Part shown: one piece after another, positions 42,778-61,379 of the stretch | Layout of the letters: the number at the start of each line of letters is the position of its first letter | Numbering within the stretch: position 1 is the stretch's first letter | Notes under the pieces: model-generated | Told to the model about the DNA's origin: nothing | The model's database searches: none | Seen by the model: the letters and a program-made list of their open reading frames with translations, nothing else | From: Eubacterium ventriosum | GTDB taxonomy: Bacteria > Bacillota > Clostridia > Lachnospirales > Lachnospiraceae | Direction: 5' to 3' | Length of the DNA: 64,000 nt | Assembly (NCBI RefSeq): GCF_025150745.1 | Contig: NZ_CP102282.1 | Span: 62,001 to 126,000, forward strand | Translations under genes and position numbers: made by a program

Positions 42778-42822
42778 CGGGATAGTTAGTCTCATTCCTA
42801 AGATATGAGCTACCGTCGCATC
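42778..42822 (-). ncRNA. pan-motif-like RNA in the leader of the pantothenate operon
   Basis: On the minus strand CTCAT/ATGAG forms a stem with a 9-base loop, followed by a bulged A, the TAG/CTA helix and a second bulged A. A helix with two bulged adenosines upstream of panB operons is the description of the pan RNA motif. A weaker hairpin (TGGTAT / ATACCG) lies further upstream and might be a second copy. Confidence 0.55.
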
Positions 42823-42926
42823 AGTTTTTTATATAGTCATTTTCCTTCGGTATAGTTTCTGTCGAATACCATCCGTGGAATAATTTAGCACATTTAAAAT
42901 AGTAATGCAACCTTATAGCAAAAAAA

Positions 42927-47679: not shown

Positions 47680-47854
47680 AGAGGATAGCGACGTTGATCG
47701 GCTATCGTGGCTTCGAAGCAGTTGACTGTTTCGGTATGCAGCCAATTGTGGAGCCTGACCTTGGGTTATGCGATAACCTCAAACCGAATAGGTTTTTCTA
47801 AACCGAAAGAAAACGCTTTACAAGAGTCTTGCATATGCAAGGCTCTTTACTTTT
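47680..47854 (+). ncRNA. structured RNA of unassigned class (about 175 nt)
   Basis: A stretch with no open frame, higher GC than its surroundings, between a strong promoter and an intrinsic terminator. It contains several helices: GGATAGC/GCTATC near the 5' end, GGCTTC/GGAGCC enclosing a further loop, GGTTAT/ATAACC, and AAACC/GGTTT. It reads like a stable small RNA or a riboswitch. The two ends do not pair, which argues against 6S RNA; the raiA motif and other Clostridial RNAs remain candidates. I could not assign a class. Confidence 0.65.
47822..47854 (+). terminator. intrinsic terminator of the structured RNA
   Basis: AAGAGTCTTGCA and TGCAAGGCTCTT form a 12-bp stem (one G-U) with a two-base gap, then TACTTTT. 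It lies 20 bases upstream of the next gene start. Confidence 0.75.
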
Positions 47855-55207: not shown

Positions 55208-56095
55208 TTATTCAACCACTCCGCCTTCAACTACAAGTTTTTCAGGATCGATACTATCTCCGTAAACACTCTTTAATGTTTCATCAAAGTCCTTATGGAA
55301 GAATTTTTCCTTAGCCAATGTCTTAATTTCATCATTTAACCAGTTAAGCAACTCTGTGTTACCCTTCTGTACTGCAGGTGCAATTGTGTCAATATCTCCA
55401 AGTGATTCAACTCCTACTACGAATCCTTTGTTCTGTTTTGCCCATGCAAGAACTTCTGTGTTGTCTGTTGAGAATGCATCTCCACGGCCATCTAACAAAG
55501 CATCATATGCTTCCTGATATTCATCAAATTTTACAAGTGTTACATCAGGATAGTTTTTTGAAAAATATGTTTCTGCTGTTGTTCCCTTAACAACAATTAA
55601 TTTCTTTCCCTTTAACTGATTTACATCTGTTATTTCTGCCTTTTGTGGTGAAACAATTCCAAGTGCCACCTTCATATATGGAAGTGCGAAATCAACCTGT
55701 TCTTTTCTTTCATCAGTTACTGTAAAGTTTGCCAATGTAATGTCAACTTTTGCTGATTTTAAATATTCAACACGGCTTGCTGCCTCTACATAAACAAAAT
55801 CAACTGCATCTTCACTACCAAGAAGATCCTTTGCAATTCTCTTTGCAAAATAAACATCATACCCCTGAACTTTTCCATTTTCGTCTACATAACCAAATGG
55901 ATTCTTGTCGCTAAACACACCAATTTTGATTTTGCCTGACTTCTTAATTTCGTCAATAGTTCTAGCCTTTGCCGTAGCTGATGCCTGACTTGCATTTTCT
56001 GCTCCATTCTGTGTAGTATTGCTGTTTCCACATCCTGCAATAACTCCTGCAATAATACCAACTACCAATAAAACTCCTAAAATTTTCTTTTTCAT
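55208..56095 (-). CDS. amino-acid ABC transporter substrate-binding lipoprotein (cysteine-type)
   Basis: 295 aa, family 3 solute-binding protein. The lipobox GVIAGC anchors it outside. KIKIGVFSDKNPFGYVDENGKVQGYDV and the region AANFTVTDERK..VDFALPY (here LANFTVTDERKEQVDFALPY) mark the polar amino-acid class, and the start resembles Campylobacter CjaA, a cysteine binder. Last gene of the transporter operon permease-permease-ATPase-SBP, though a 150-bp repeat separates it from the ATPase gene. AGGAGGG precedes the ATG. Confidence 0.88.
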   Translation of the reverse strand: MKKKILGVLLVVGIIAGVIAGCGNSNTTQNGAENASQASATAKARTIDEIKKSGKIKIGVFSDKNPFGYVDENGKVQGYDVYFAKRIAKDLLGSEDAVDFVYVEAASRVEYLKSAKVDITLANFTVTDERKEQVDFALPYMKVALGIVSPQKAEITDVNQLKGKKLIVVKGTTAETYFSKNYPDVTLVKFDEYQEAYDALLDGRGDAFSTDNTEVLAWAKQNKGFVVGVESLGDIDTIAPAVQKGNTELLNWLNDEIKTLAKEKFFHKDFDETLKSVYGDSIDPEKLVVEGGVVE

Positions 56096-56140: not shown

Positions 56141-56297
56141 ATCTAAACATTTTCTTATCTAAAGCTGTTTAAAGATTGTTTTAACATTTGTATCTCTAAA
56201 TATTTTCGTATTAAAAACTGTTTAAAGCTACTTTGACATTTATATATCTAAACAGTTTCATATTGAAAACTGTTTAAAAACTGTTTTGCCCTTTGCG
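56141..56297 (-). repeat. three tandem copies of the 3' end of the ATPase gene (52-53 bp period)
   Basis: The last codons and stop of the ATPase gene are followed by two more degraded copies downstream. Stop-codon positions repeat at 56248, 56196 and 56143, and each copy contains a TTTAAACAG-type core and a GTTTAG or TTTAG end. The extra copies are not translated as part of the gene. Confidence 0.65.
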
Positions 56298-56997
56298 TCT
56301 TTGGATTTTCGAAAAATCTTTTTGGCTCAGATTCTTCTACTATTTTTCCCTTATCTAAGAAAATAACCCTGTCTGCAACTGCTTTCGCAAACTCCATTTC
56401 GTGGGTTACTATAATCATGGTCATTCCTGTTTGGGCAAGTTCAAGCACCACCTGCAAAACCTCCCTTACCATTTCCGGATCAAGTGCCGCTGTTATTTCA
56501 TCAAGAAGTAAAATCTCCGGATTCATAAGCAAAGCTCTTACTATTGCAACTCTCTGCTTCTGACCGCCTGAAAGCTGTCGTGGGTAACTATCCTTTTTCT
56601 CCAAAAGTCCAACCCTTTCAAGCAACTTTTCGGCTTCTTTTTCAACATCGCTCTTTTTTCTTTTTTGAGCTTTAACCGGTGCCAAAATCAGGTTATCCAT
56701 AATTGACATATTTGGAAATAAGTCATAACTTTGAAAAACCATGCCTATTTTTTCTCTAATTAAATGAATGTTCTTTTTTTCATTCTCATAATTTTGTCCG
56801 TCTAATTTGAGTGCACCCTCATTAATACTTTCAAGCTTATTCAAACACCTTAAGAAAGTACTTTTTCCACAACCTGACGGGCCGACTATAACCACAACCT
56901 CGCCTTTTTCGATTCCAAAAGATATATCGTCTAAAACATTTGTTTTTCCATCATATGATTTCTTTAAATGTTCAACTTTCAAAATTTTTTCTGCCAT
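56248..56997 (-). CDS. amino-acid ABC transporter ATP-binding protein
   Basis: 249 aa. Walker [10 protein letters not shown] near 38-46, Q-loop [10 protein letters not shown], signature [15 protein letters not shown], Walker [16 protein letters not shown]-loop IIVTHEM. Polar amino-acid type (GlnQ/TcyN-like). AGGAG precedes the ATG. It follows the second permease by 9 bases. Confidence 0.95.
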
Positions 56998-57006
56998 GAT
57001 TTTCTC

Positions 57007-57684
57007 CTATCCTGCTAACTTTTTCCCCAAGAATGCTGACAATCTTGAAAAAGGAAAGCATATTACAAAATACATAAGGAATATTGCACCGTATACCCAA
57101 AGTGCCGAGTCGCTAGCGGTATATCTTGATGCGTCAATTATTTGTTTTCCAACCTTTACTACTTCCACAACGCCGATAAGCACTACCAAAGATGTTGTTT
57201 TAATCATACGTGTAAGCAGATTGATTGCCGATGGAAGCAGCCTTCTTATAGTCTGTGGAAAAATAATATAAATAAATACCTGCAATTTTGTAAGACCAAG
57301 CCCATAACCGCTTTCATATTGGTGCTTTGGTATTGAAATAAGTGCGCTTCTAACAAGGTCGCCCATTTCAGCCGTGCCCCAAAATGTGAACACTATGACC
57401 GCCGCCAATTCTCCCGGCATGTTCATTCCCAAGTGCTTGGCTGCCCCAAAATAAACAAGGAAAAGTAACACTAGTTGAGGCATAATTCTTACAATTTCCA
57501 GATAAATTCTGCAAATCAATTTGACTACTTTGTTTTTTGATGTCATTATCATTCCCAAAATGAATCCCAGTATAATTGAAAAAATCATTGCTATAAGAGC
57601 AATTCGTAATGTTACCCAAAGTCCCTGGCATAGCCTTAGAAAATTGTTGCCTTTAAACAACACACTAATCCCCATATTCTGCAT
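57007..57684 (-). CDS. amino-acid ABC transporter permease (second)
   Basis: 226 aa from ATG 57684 (GGAGG upstream); overlaps the first permease by 20 bases. His/Glu/Gln/Arg/opine permease type, about five helices, with the EAA-loop RSALISIPKHQYESGYGLGLTKLQ split as ISIPKHQYESGYGLGL. Works as a pair with the next-upstream permease. Confidence 0.93.
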   Translation of the reverse strand: MQNMGISVLFKGNNFLRLCQGLWVTLRIALIAMIFSIILGFILGMIMTSKNKVVKLICRIYLEIVRIMPQLVLLFLVYFGAAKHLGMNMPGELAAVIVFTFWGTAEMGDLVRSALISIPKHQYESGYGLGLTKLQVFIYIIFPQTIRRLLPSAINLLTRMIKTTSLVVLIGVVEVVKVGKQIIDASRYTASDSALWVYGAIFLMYFVICFPFSRLSAFLGKKLAG

Positions 57685-58324
57685 AGCGAACCCTCCTTTC
57701 AACCAAACTGCAAATCAATGAAATCGGAAGCAAAATAATAAGGTAAGCAATAACCAACATAAATAATGCTTCATCTGTTTTGTAATAAATTCCAATTAAA
57801 TCTTTTGTAATAAACATTAAATCAGCCAATGCCACAGCACTAAAAACTGATGTTTCTTTTATTAAAAATATAATGTTGGCACAAAATGCCGGAATTGAAT
57901 TTGAAACTGCCTGTGGAAGAATTACATATCTAAAGGTCTGTGATTTTTTCATTCCAAGGCTTAATGCTGACTGAATTTGAATGCTTTCCACATTATCAAG
58001 TCCGCTTCTAAAAGCCTCTGCCATATAACTTCCTCCAAGGAAAGCCAATCCTATAACACCACACTGCTCCGATGTAAGTACAATTCCAACCTTTGGCAAT
58101 CCAAAATATAAGAAAAATAACTGAATCAACAACGGTGTGTTTCTTGACAATTCAATATAAAATCCAACTATTTTGTCTAAAACCGGCACCTTAAAATATC
58201 TAATCAGGCTTACGATTAAGCCTACAACTATAGCAAGCAAAATCCCCCAAAATGCCATAATCAATGTTAACTTTGCTGCTTCCACATACAAGGGTATATG
58301 CTCATTAATAAAATTAAAGTCCAT
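57665..58324 (-). CDS. amino-acid ABC transporter permease (first)
   Basis: 219 aa, same family, with ELSRNTPLLIQLFFLYFGLP and EAA loop AFRSGLDNVESIQIQSALSLG. Its ATG (58324) shares one base with the stop of the upstream leader peptide (TAATG). A modest ribosome site (GCAGG) is present, so translation may depend on the leader. Confidence 0.93.
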   Translation of the reverse strand: MDFNFINEHIPLYVEAAKLTLIMAFWGILLAIVVGLIVSLIRYFKVPVLDKIVGFYIELSRNTPLLIQLFFLYFGLPKVGIVLTSEQCGVIGLAFLGGSYMAEAFRSGLDNVESIQIQSALSLGMKKSQTFRYVILPQAVSNSIPAFCANIIFLIKETSVFSAVALADLMFITKDLIGIYYKTDEALFMLVIAYLIILLPISLICSLVERRVRYAEYGD

Positions 58325-58419
58325 TAGTCTACCTGCTTTCTAACTGTGCTATGTGAATATGTAAGAGAATTGCACATACATACTGAACTATATTTTAAAA
58401 ATTCAATAATACCTCTCAT
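58324..58419 (-). CDS. 31-aa leader peptide with Cys-Met-Cys, upstream of cysteine-type ABC operon
   Basis: Short frame with GGGAGAG seven bases before ATG 58419. It encodes MRGIIEFLKYSSV, then CMCNSLTYSHST, and ends VRKQVD. Codons 14-16 are TGT ATG TGC. Its stop overlaps the permease start by one base. The transporter downstream looks like a cysteine importer, so the peptide is well placed to sense Cys-tRNA or Met-tRNA shortage or to couple translation. Confidence 0.6.
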   Translation of the reverse strand: MRGIIEFLKYSSVCMCNSLTYSHSTVRKQVD

Positions 58420-58458
58420 TTTTAATCTCTCCCTTTTTCCCTATTGGTATTGTAGGAT

Positions 58459-58488
58459 ATGATAGTTTTTAAAAACGTTTTTTATCAA
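58459..58488 (-). promoter_or_regulatory. promoter of leader peptide and ABC operon
   Basis: Minus-strand TTGATA (58483-58488), 18-base spacer, TATCAT (58459-58464), placing the start about 30 bases before the leader ATG. Confidence 0.45.
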
Positions 58489-58705: not shown

Positions 58706-58729
58706 GTAATCAATTTCCAGATTGATTAC
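58706..58729 (+). promoter_or_regulatory. hairpin directly before the ribosome site of the PRTase-like gene
   Basis: GTAATCAAT and ATTGATTAC form a perfect 9-bp stem with a 6-base loop, ending four bases before AAGGAGG. Confidence 0.5.
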
Positions 58730-58745
58730 GGAAAGGAGGCCCTTT

Positions 58746-59393
58746 ATGATTAAAAACAAAATCGTGAAATACTATGCCAGAAAGGACTCTAACATTGCAT
58801 TAAAAGTTATTCCTGGGCATTTTGTTACTAATCACTCACACCTTAATTATTATCTTGACATGACTACTATGAAGACACGTCAGAACGAAGCTGAACGAAT
58901 CGCCATTGCCATGAAGGATTATTATAATGTTATGGATAAGCCAATTGATACAATTGTTTGTTTAGACGGTTGCGAAGTTATCGGTGCTTTTCTTGCAAGT
59001 GAGCTTAGCAGATCAGGAGTTTTATCAACTAACGCACATAAGACTATTTACGTCGTCACTCCTGAATTTAATTCCAACGGACAGATGATTTTCAGAGATA
59101 ACCTGAAACCTGAAATCTATGGAAAGAACGTTCTTCTGCTTCTTGCTTCAGCAACAACAGGAAAGACTGTCCGCAACAGCATTGAATGCATCGAATATTA
59201 CGGTGGCATTCTTCAGGGTATCTCAGCTATCTTTAGCGCAGTTGATTCAATTAACGGACATAGAATTGATGCACTATTTAGAGCAGATGATATTCCTAAC
59301 TATGAAGCATTTGCTCACAGTGATTGTCCAATGTGCAAGGAAGGCAAACCTGTAGAAGCACTGGTTAACGGATATGGATATAGTGAGATATAG
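58746..59393 (+). CDS. orotate phosphoribosyltransferase-like PRTase
   Basis: 215 aa from ATG 58746 with AAAGGAGG upstream (the frame opens eight codons earlier without a site). A type I PRTase fold is suggested by PIDTIVCLDGCEVIGAFLA and NVLLLLASATTGKTVRNSIE, where the usual acidic PRPP-loop pair is replaced by ALL-ASATTGKT. Ends with CPMCKEGKPVEALVNGYGYS. It is often called orotate PRTase in related genomes, but a true pyrE exists at 11878-12558, so this is probably another PRTase or regulatory protein. Confidence 0.75.
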   Translation: MIKNKIVKYYARKDSNIALKVIPGHFVTNHSHLNYYLDMTTMKTRQNEAERIAIAMKDYYNVMDKPIDTIVCLDGCEVIGAFLASELSRSGVLSTNAHKTIYVVTPEFNSNGQMIFRDNLKPEIYGKNVLLLLASATTGKTVRNSIECIEYYGGILQGISAIFSAVDSINGHRIDALFRADDIPNYEAFAHSDCPMCKEGKPVEALVNGYGYSEI

Positions 59394-61043: not shown

Positions 61044-61364
61044 ATACCCCAAAAATAGAAAGATTTGAAATGTCGGGGTACATTTATCGCATTTTCAAAC
61101 TATATGTTGCATAAAAATGATGGAGTTTGAGGCAAGTGTACCCAGAAAATTAAGGATTTTCAAATGTCGGGGTACATTTATCGCGTTCTCAAACTATATG
61201 TTGTGTAAAATCATTGAAATTTTAGACAAACGTACCCCCAAAAAATTGGGAATTTAAAATATCGGGGTACACCTAGGATAAAATATCACTTATAAGTGGC
61301 ATGTAACATTCAAAAATGTGAAATTTGTACCCCAAAAATCAAGGAAAAAATTATATCGGGGTAC
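61044..61364 (+). repeat. tandem palindromic repeat array, locus 2 (four units, 94-bp period)
   Basis: Palindromes bounded by (G)TACCCC and GGGGTAC at 61044-61081, 61138-61175, 61232-61270 and 61327-61364; start spacing 94, 94 and 95. Linkers 1 and 2 share ATTTATCGC and TCAAACTATATGTTG; the third linker is different. Same family and same orientation as 20911-21136. Non-coding. Confidence 0.85.
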
Positions 61365-61379
61365 CGGGAGCAAAAAAGA

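What the first reader, a model, noticed from the sequence alone, without database searches (positions are those of the whole stretch)
58324..58488. Cys-Met-Cys leader peptide overlapping a cysteine-type ABC transporter operon
A 31-codon frame with its own ribosome site and promoter contains TGT ATG TGC and ends in TAATG fused to the first permease start. The downstream substrate-binding protein resembles cysteine binders. This fits a translation-coupled sulfur amino-acid sensor: stalling on Cys/Met codons would alter initiation at the permease. Cysteine leader peptides are known in mycobacteria; I know of none described for this family.
Basis: partly seen in the sequence, partly recalled or inferred. 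Interest (0 to 1): 0.75.

Follow-up and report, generated by a model that had tools for sequence, protein, structure and literature searches.

The report
Cysteine-codon leader before cysteine importer operon
A gut-type bacterium has a tiny reading frame with two cysteine codons just before the genes of a likely cysteine importer; related bacteria carry far more cysteine-rich versions in the same place, so this looks like one member of a family of built-in cysteine gauges, though its working here is not proven.

Summary
A 31-codon frame (58324-58419, minus) with its own SD and promoter-like site holds TGT-ATG-TGC and ends in TAATG on the first permease start. The peptide and TAATG overlap occur in no other of 95 non-redundant ortholog upstreams. 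But 24 of those 95 carry an SD-preceded, cysteine-rich leader frame (shuffles: mean 0.65, max 2). Of these, 21 of 24 have a terminator-like hairpin before the permease (shuffled spacers: 0). Where testable, 22 of 23 begin downstream of a CCTA-N9-TAGG operator of CymR/IscR (Rrf2) type. The window has such a site 20 nt before its frame. The same genome has two more such leaders: cysK (related peptide in 7 genomes of the genus) and a sulfur island (polycysteine, terminator, fold z -3.7). The binding protein's closest solved relatives are, from memory, cysteine binders.

So cysteine leader peptides in Clostridia appear real, and I saw none described in my searches. The window copy is atypical: two Cys codons, no terminator, no significant RNA structure. 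Its cysteine density alone is no more than chance; its position and overlap are rare in shuffles. A translation-level cysteine gauge is the best reading (0.6). A vestigial leader or a chance frame remain possible.

The parts
58483..58488 (-). -35-like hexamer TTGATA
   Evidence: consensus match only
58459..58464 (-). -10-like hexamer TATCAT, 18-nt spacer
   Evidence: consensus match only
58438..58457 (-). operator TCCTACAATACCAATAGGGA of the CCTA-N9-TAGG type (CymR/IscR-like Rrf2 site, inferred), just downstream of the -10
   Evidence: 16.9 bits, p=0.005, the floor of the test, with a matrix trained without the window or the polycysteine leaders
58427..58433 (-). SD GGGAGAG of the leader frame
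   Evidence: duplex -9.1 kcal/mol
58324..58419 (-). leader frame, 31 codons, stop TAA overlapping the permease ATG (TAATG)
58372..58380 (-). codons 14-16 TGT ATG TGC (Cys-Met-Cys)
58332..58341 (-). SD of the permease AGAAAGCAGG, inside the last codons of the leader frame
   Evidence: duplex -12.0 kcal/mol; background median -9.2
57665..58324 (-). amino-acid ABC transporter permease (219 aa)
57007..57684 (-). second permease
   Evidence: ATG 57684 has the strong SD
56248..56997 (-). ATP-binding protein
55208..56095 (-). substrate-binding lipoprotein, nearest solved relatives 2yjp and 1xt8

Best explanation
The window holds one member of a class of cysteine leader peptides of Clostridia. Transcription from a promoter under a CymR/IscR-type (Rrf2) operator starts just upstream of a short translated frame with cysteine codons near codon 15. 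In most relatives that have such a frame, a ribosome held at those codons by scarce Cys-tRNA would prevent an intrinsic terminator and let the importer be transcribed. In the window the terminator segment is absent and the frame runs into the permease start, so control can only be translational. I think most likely: with ample cysteine, ribosomes translate through the frame and cover the permease SD, which lies inside its last codons; with scarce cysteine they wait at codons 14-16, about 30 nt short of that SD, and free ribosomes start the permease. Shown: frame, operator-like site, SDs, overlap, the class in relatives and in the same genome. Inferred: translation of the frame, stalling, the direction of the effect, repressor identity.
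For: Cys-rich SD-preceded leader frames in 24 of 95 non-redundant ortholog upstreams, shuffles mean 0.65, max 2; in the stricter first count over 400 nt 19 of 95, shuffles mean 0.3, 0 on the reverse strand, 0 in 26 paralog upstreams. Terminator-like hairpin between frame and permease in 21 of 24, 0 in shuffled spacers. Operator upstream of the frame in 22 of 23 testable polycysteine leaders and in the window; gap 20 nt in the window, 7-66 nt in the others. First Cys of the densest cluster at median codon 15, frame length 26-49; window 14 and 31. Same genome: cysK leader MSRTKTAYNYKMRKTYCCNISVGETERMCSR, a related frame in 7 genomes of the genus, this one included; island leader MSTIRVFVRNIHMCCMMCCCERYYIIPCLCA with operator and terminator, fold z -3.7. 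Changes at Cys codons are synonymous in 9 of 15 against 1 in 8 expected, P 2e-5 (the leaders were picked for Cys content, which biases this). Binding protein: 2yjp 299 bits, 1xt8 295 bits, next 125.
Against: The window frame has only two Cys codons, and that density class is not enriched. Peptide and TAATG overlap in no other of 95 orthologs; of SD-preceded frames of 20 or more codons ending within 5 nt of the permease start there is one other, L134, with no Cys cluster. The three congeners have no such frame and no operator match within one mismatch. No terminator. No significant leader structure (z 0.56 and 1.95); the drop in opening energy on stalling is matched by 56 of 300 shuffles. Termination-reinitiation at TAATG would give the opposite sign.
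Confidence: 0.6

Rival explanations
1. Vestigial leader. The lineage once had a polycysteine attenuator; the terminator and most Cys codons are lost, and cysteine control now rests on the Rrf2-type operator alone. The frame is translated but has no regulatory effect beyond coupling.
For: 18 operator sites lie close to the start in orthologs without a polycysteine frame (the training set); the polycysteine leader needs 16 gains or losses on the permease tree, at least 12 forced by well supported branches; the window groups with one polycysteine leader (L063) and several rows without; no structure or terminator in the window.
Against: Frame, SD and position relative to the operator are intact, the cysteine cluster lies at the usual codon, and cysK leaders of the genus also have few Cys codons and, by eye, no terminator.
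Confidence: 0.23
2. Chance frame. An open frame without function happens to lie between operator and permease; TGT and TGC are incidental.
For: No ortholog with the same frame; two Cys in six codons is as common in shuffles as in real upstreams; L060 shows a similar two-Cys frame that its sister L062 lacks.
Against: A frame starting near the operator and ending on the start codon appears in 0.26% of shuffled leaders, with two Cys in 1 of 40,000; leaders of this kind precede two other sulfur loci in the same genome.
Confidence: 0.15
3. Plain translational coupling: the frame only feeds ribosomes to the permease start by termination-reinitiation and senses nothing.
For: TAATG overlap; SD of the frame.
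Against: The permease has an SD of its own that pairs better than that of the frame (-12.0 against -9.1 kcal/mol), so coupling is not needed; cysteine codons at the class position.
Confidence: 0.1

Closest known systems
Polycysteine leaderless short ORFs of mycobacteria (Canestrari et al. 2020)
   Same: Cys-codon short frames before cysteine genes, proposed to sense cysteine through the speed of the ribosome.
   Different: Here SD-led, in Clostridia, behind a CymR/IscR-type operator; relatives have terminators; the window frame overlaps the start codon. The paper itself is not held; I saw its title and short descriptions in passages of PMC9031893 and PMC13236596; further details recalled.
Candidate cys leader peptides of Actinobacteria (PMC1262725, passages)
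   Same: Runs of Cys codons before cys operons, found by comparison, without conserved terminators.
   Different: Other phylum, other genes, Cys runs near the stop codon.
uORFC-8-2 motif, cysS of Rhodobacterales (PMC8632094, passages)
   Same: Conserved uORF with tandem Cys codons, usually at positions 14 and 15, and an intrinsic terminator; the position matches the median codon 15 here.
   Different: Only before cysS in alphaproteobacteria; no Rfam match at gathering score in the window leader or ten related loci.
Histidine leader peptides of Bacilli (PMC2965389, passages)
   Same: Leader-peptide attenuation in Firmicutes, which that 2010 paper presents as new there.
   Different: Histidine, hisS and hisZ.
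CymR regulon and Cys T-boxes of Firmicutes (PMC3828012, PMC2940859, passages)
   Same: Cysteine control of cysK and cystine transporters; IscR and CymR motifs are said to be similar; cysK of some clostridia has no T-box and an unknown control.
   Different: No T-box found here; a leader peptide takes that place.

Membership tests
Cysteine leader peptide (uORF) class | short frame with its own SD between promoter and regulated gene | tested here: met
Cysteine leader peptide (uORF) class | cysteine codons beyond chance | tested here: inconclusive
   met for the class (24 of 95 against 0.65); the window with 2 Cys lies in a class not enriched, though two Cys near the operator is rare in shuffles of its own leader
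Cysteine leader peptide (uORF) class | regulated gene belongs to cysteine supply | tested here: met
   binding protein nearest to 2yjp and 1xt8 (their cysteine ligand recalled); operator shared with cysK and an iscS-like gene named by eye; by sequence only
Cysteine leader peptide (uORF) class | frame conserved in relatives | tested here: inconclusive
   kind of frame recurs in position and content; the exact frame in none
Cysteine leader peptide (uORF) class | ribosome stalling under cysteine limitation | not testable with these tools
   needs profiling or reporters
Classical transcription attenuator | terminator between leader frame and gene | tested here: not met
   none in the window; met in 21 of 24 relatives with a polycysteine frame, so the window is not filed here
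Translation attenuator with sequestered start | structure that hides the SD and is opened by a stalled ribosome | tested here: not met
   56 of 300 shuffles do as well
CymR/IscR-type (Rrf2) regulon | operator motif at the promoter | tested here: met
CymR/IscR-type (Rrf2) regulon | Rrf2 regulator in the genome, with the motif before its gene | tested here: met
   3 Rrf2 matches; motif with one mismatch about 75 nt before the Rrf2 domain of two of them
CymR/IscR-type (Rrf2) regulon | curated CymR equivalog score | tested here: not met
   113 and 116 bits against 195
Cystine transporter (TcyABC-like) | curated cystine equivalog score of binding protein | tested here: not met
   98 bits against 312; substrate not testable here
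T-box or S-box leader | Rfam match | tested here: not met

The most novel reading that the evidence does not exclude
Clostridia, Lachnospiraceae above all, run a cysteine network with two layers at many targets: an Rrf2-type operator at the promoter and, directly behind it, a cysteine-counting leader peptide. It covers the ABC importer, cysK, a TcyP-like symporter and a sulfur island. The read-out is switchable in evolution: terminator in most, start-site occupation in the window and in cysK of part of this genus.
Probability: 0.55. Interest if true: 0.72.

Novelty: new variant of a known kind. Interest (0 to 1): 0.6.

Why it matters
A 2010 survey knew of no leader-peptide attenuation outside Proteobacteria and Actinobacteria before its own histidine leaders of Bacilli (PMC2965389, passages), and the control of cysK in clostridia without a T-box was left open (PMC2940859, passages). 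A class of cysteine leaders in common gut bacteria would help fill that gap, point to cysteine as substrate of an importer that curated models leave unnamed, and offer a natural series in which the sensing part stays and the output changes.

Tried and rejected
First conclusion withdrawn: I asked only for frames ending near the permease start and judged the leader not conserved. Searching 600 nt upstream showed the cysteine-rich frames. RNA switch in the window: not supported. Conserved RNA structure in cysK leaders of six genomes: five pairs, -1.05 kcal/mol, not supported. Known RNA family: none at gathering score in the window leader or in ten related loci; at E up to 1 none in the window leader and two matches far below their gathering scores in the island leader. 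Purifying selection on the whole peptides: not shown (9 of 32, 10 of 38 and 6 of 19 single changes synonymous, P 0.25, 0.23, 0.09). The similarity of the window peptide to L060 (MCRCNALT) is probably chance, since the sister L062 lacks it. cysK leaders outside the genus: 1 of 27 readable loci (29 looked at) is polycysteine, so that one is local. Upstream of the symporter, 2 of 8 loci have a polycysteine frame; the five congeners have none within 1500 nt. The genome scan for the operator is not specific: 40 hits with up to one mismatch against 31 for the reversed pattern; weight rests on which genes are hit. Without an SD requirement, frames with scattered Cys also reach the start codon in L129, L055 and L058; not counted. 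One search used a leader shifted by one base for its chance figures; one search replaces it. Alignment A1 used a wrong stretch of L183 and was dropped.

Full report
What is there. On the minus strand a promoter-like pair (TTGATA-18-TATCAT) is followed by TCCTACAATACCAATAGGGA (58457-58438). Then come SD GGGAGAG and a 31-codon frame (58419-58324) whose stop overlaps the first permease start as TAATG. Codons 14-16 are TGT ATG TGC. The operon has two permeases, an ATPase and a binding lipoprotein. The permease SD, AGAAAGCAGG (58341-58332), lies within the last codons of the frame and pairs well with 16S rRNA (-12.0 kcal/mol; 48 background frames median -9.2).

Substrate. NCBIfam names no equivalog above its cut-off for these proteins. 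By sequence the binding protein is closest to 2yjp (299 bits) and 1xt8 (295 bits), the next being 125 bits. I recall both as cysteine-bound structures; the tool names them only as amino-acid binding proteins. The operator gives independent support, below.

Relatives. The genus search gave three orthologs near 64% in 22 other genomes. The family search gave 71 of 397 genomes at E 1e-60, of which 30 loci were delivered, one being the window's own. A scan of genome contigs gave the best 80 of 394. Together these are 113 upstream stretches: 80, 29 from the family, 3 congeners and the window. They are 104 distinct by their last 80 nt and 95 after removal of near copies. No other of the 95 has a TAATG start; an SD-preceded frame of 20 or more codons ending within 5 nt of the permease start occurs in 2 of 95, the window and L134.

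Operator. CCTA-N9-TAGG occurs exactly in 14 of 104 upstreams and with at most one mismatch in 33. Exact counts at other spacers from 3 to 17 are 2 or fewer. In reversed sequence this spacer gives 0 exact and 7 with at most one mismatch. Spacer 17 has 24 with at most one mismatch, unexplained. The three congeners have no match within one mismatch. In the window's genome, sites precede cysK (two sites; named by TIGR01139, 460 bits; the gene after it looks like an O-acetylhomoserine sulfhydrylase by eye), a gene that looks like iscS by eye, and two of three Rrf2 genes. The scan as a whole is noisy (40 hits against 31 for the reversed pattern). One of these two Rrf2 proteins scores best, among equivalogs, with IscR (124 bits), the other with CymR (116 bits); both fall below the curated cut-offs. 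That IscR and CymR sites are alike is stated in PMC3828012 (passages). I call the site CymR/IscR-like; which protein binds is inferred.

Leader frames. Scanning 600 nt upstream for SD-preceded frames of 8-50 codons, 24 of 95 upstreams have one with at least 3 Cys in 6 codons; 20 rounds of shuffling all 95 give mean 0.65, maximum 2. With exactly 2 Cys, the window's class, the counts are 8 real and a mean of 11 shuffled. A stricter scan over 400 nt gave 19 of 95, shuffles mean 0.3, reverse strand 0, reversed 0, 26 paralog upstreams 0. Examples are MKMYHTNNENQNIGCCCCCMCQTTAYLCARNGI (L097) and MSRMNSNQMNFTGCCRCSCSCECFIERSALPAHSCQ (L063, from the window's own clade, 81% identical permease). A terminator-like hairpin follows in 21 of 24 before the permease, never in shuffled spacers. 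With an operator matrix trained on 18 sites from leaders without such frames and without the window, a site lies upstream of the frame in 22 of 23 testable polycysteine leaders (L106 fails, L096 too short) and in the window (16.9 bits, p 0.005, the floor of that test). Gaps are 7-66 nt; window 20. The first Cys of the densest cluster is at median codon 15, lengths 26-49.

Evolution. On a tree of 95 permeases the polycysteine leader needs 16 gains or losses (at least 12 forced by well supported branches; shuffled labels mean 21.6). The window sits in a clade of ten with support 98/94 that includes L063 with, and the Blautia rows without, such a leader.

Same genome. The cysK leader has a frame behind its second operator, MSRTKTAYNYKMRKTYCCNISVGETERMCSR. 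Related frames are before cysK in six other genomes of the genus: 7 of 26 readable loci of 30 fetched. In four of them the stop abuts the cysK SD, a geometry like the window's; in this genome it ends 186 nt before cysK. A second cysK (L198) has a frame with six Cys in 31 codons and, by eye, a terminator. A third leader, MSTIRVFVRNIHMCCMMCCCERYYIIPCLCA, lies behind an operator and before a terminator hairpin, upstream of a secreted protein, a symporter of the DctA/GltP family (TcyP-like by recall; no curated cut-off reached), PatB and MetNIQ-like genes; it folds with z -3.7. Two of eight symporter loci read, both of other genera, have frames with SCCSCCC and CCSCCSCCCCC behind an operator-like site.

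Mechanism in the window. No terminator, no significant structure (z 0.56; 3' part 1.95). Blocking codon 14 lowers the cost of opening the permease start by 1.5 kcal/mol, but 56 of 300 shuffles do as much. So neither classical attenuation nor a sequestering hairpin is supported. What the anatomy allows is occupation of the permease SD by ribosomes finishing the frame, relieved when they wait at the Cys codons. That has the sign expected of an importer. Termination-reinitiation at TAATG would have the opposite sign. I cannot decide between them here.

Print. Ten searches of the open library (listings, two of them capped at 15 of 286 and 15 of 135) and passages of eight papers showed cysteine leaders in Actinobacteria and alphaproteobacteria, and none for Firmicutes or Clostridia. 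Most subscription papers are not held, so absence is not shown.

Verdict. The class is well supported; membership of the window's copy rests on position, SD, overlap and company, not on its cysteine count. It is neither a classical attenuator nor a shown translation attenuator.

Noticed in passing
L232 (G000:C1:1096800-1108000), 800-1240: Promoter-like site and operator, polycysteine leader frame, terminator and a second operator before a secreted protein, a symporter, PatB, a LysR-like gene and MetNIQ-like genes: a complete-looking cysteine attenuator in the same genome.
   Followed up: partly
L144 1768-1838 (G000:C1, before cysK): The stretch of about 190 nt between leader frame and cysK holds two copies of AAAAGTGAAAAACAACTAAT followed by TAGGGA, seen by eye, with no known role.
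   Followed up: no
L032, L078, L099, L100, L104, directly upstream of the permease: Behind the terminator these leaders have a second short frame (MSQRLKKGNEYHGF in L032) that overlaps the permease start and has no Cys.
   Followed up: no
window 61045-61365: Four copies of a 36-nt unit at 94-95 nt spacing (CCCC..CGGGGTACA, ends complementary) in a stretch between genes.
   Followed up: partly
window 58722-59393 (+): Divergent gene with weak resemblance to orotate phosphoribosyltransferase (32 bits, below cut-off), sharing the intergenic region with the importer operon and having a good promoter-like site (58637, 11 of 12).
   Followed up: no
window 42783-42875 (-), 47708-47821 (+): Rfam matches: pan motif (40.6 bits) and drum RNA (102.9 bits).
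   Followed up: no
permease upstreams, spacer 17: CCTA-N17-TAGG with at most one mismatch is also frequent (24 of 104), perhaps a second, related half-site arrangement.
   Followed up: no
L129, L055, L058, at the permease start: Frames without an SD but with scattered Cys codons (for example CVCLFLC in L129) end on the permease start as ATGA or just before it.
   Followed up: no
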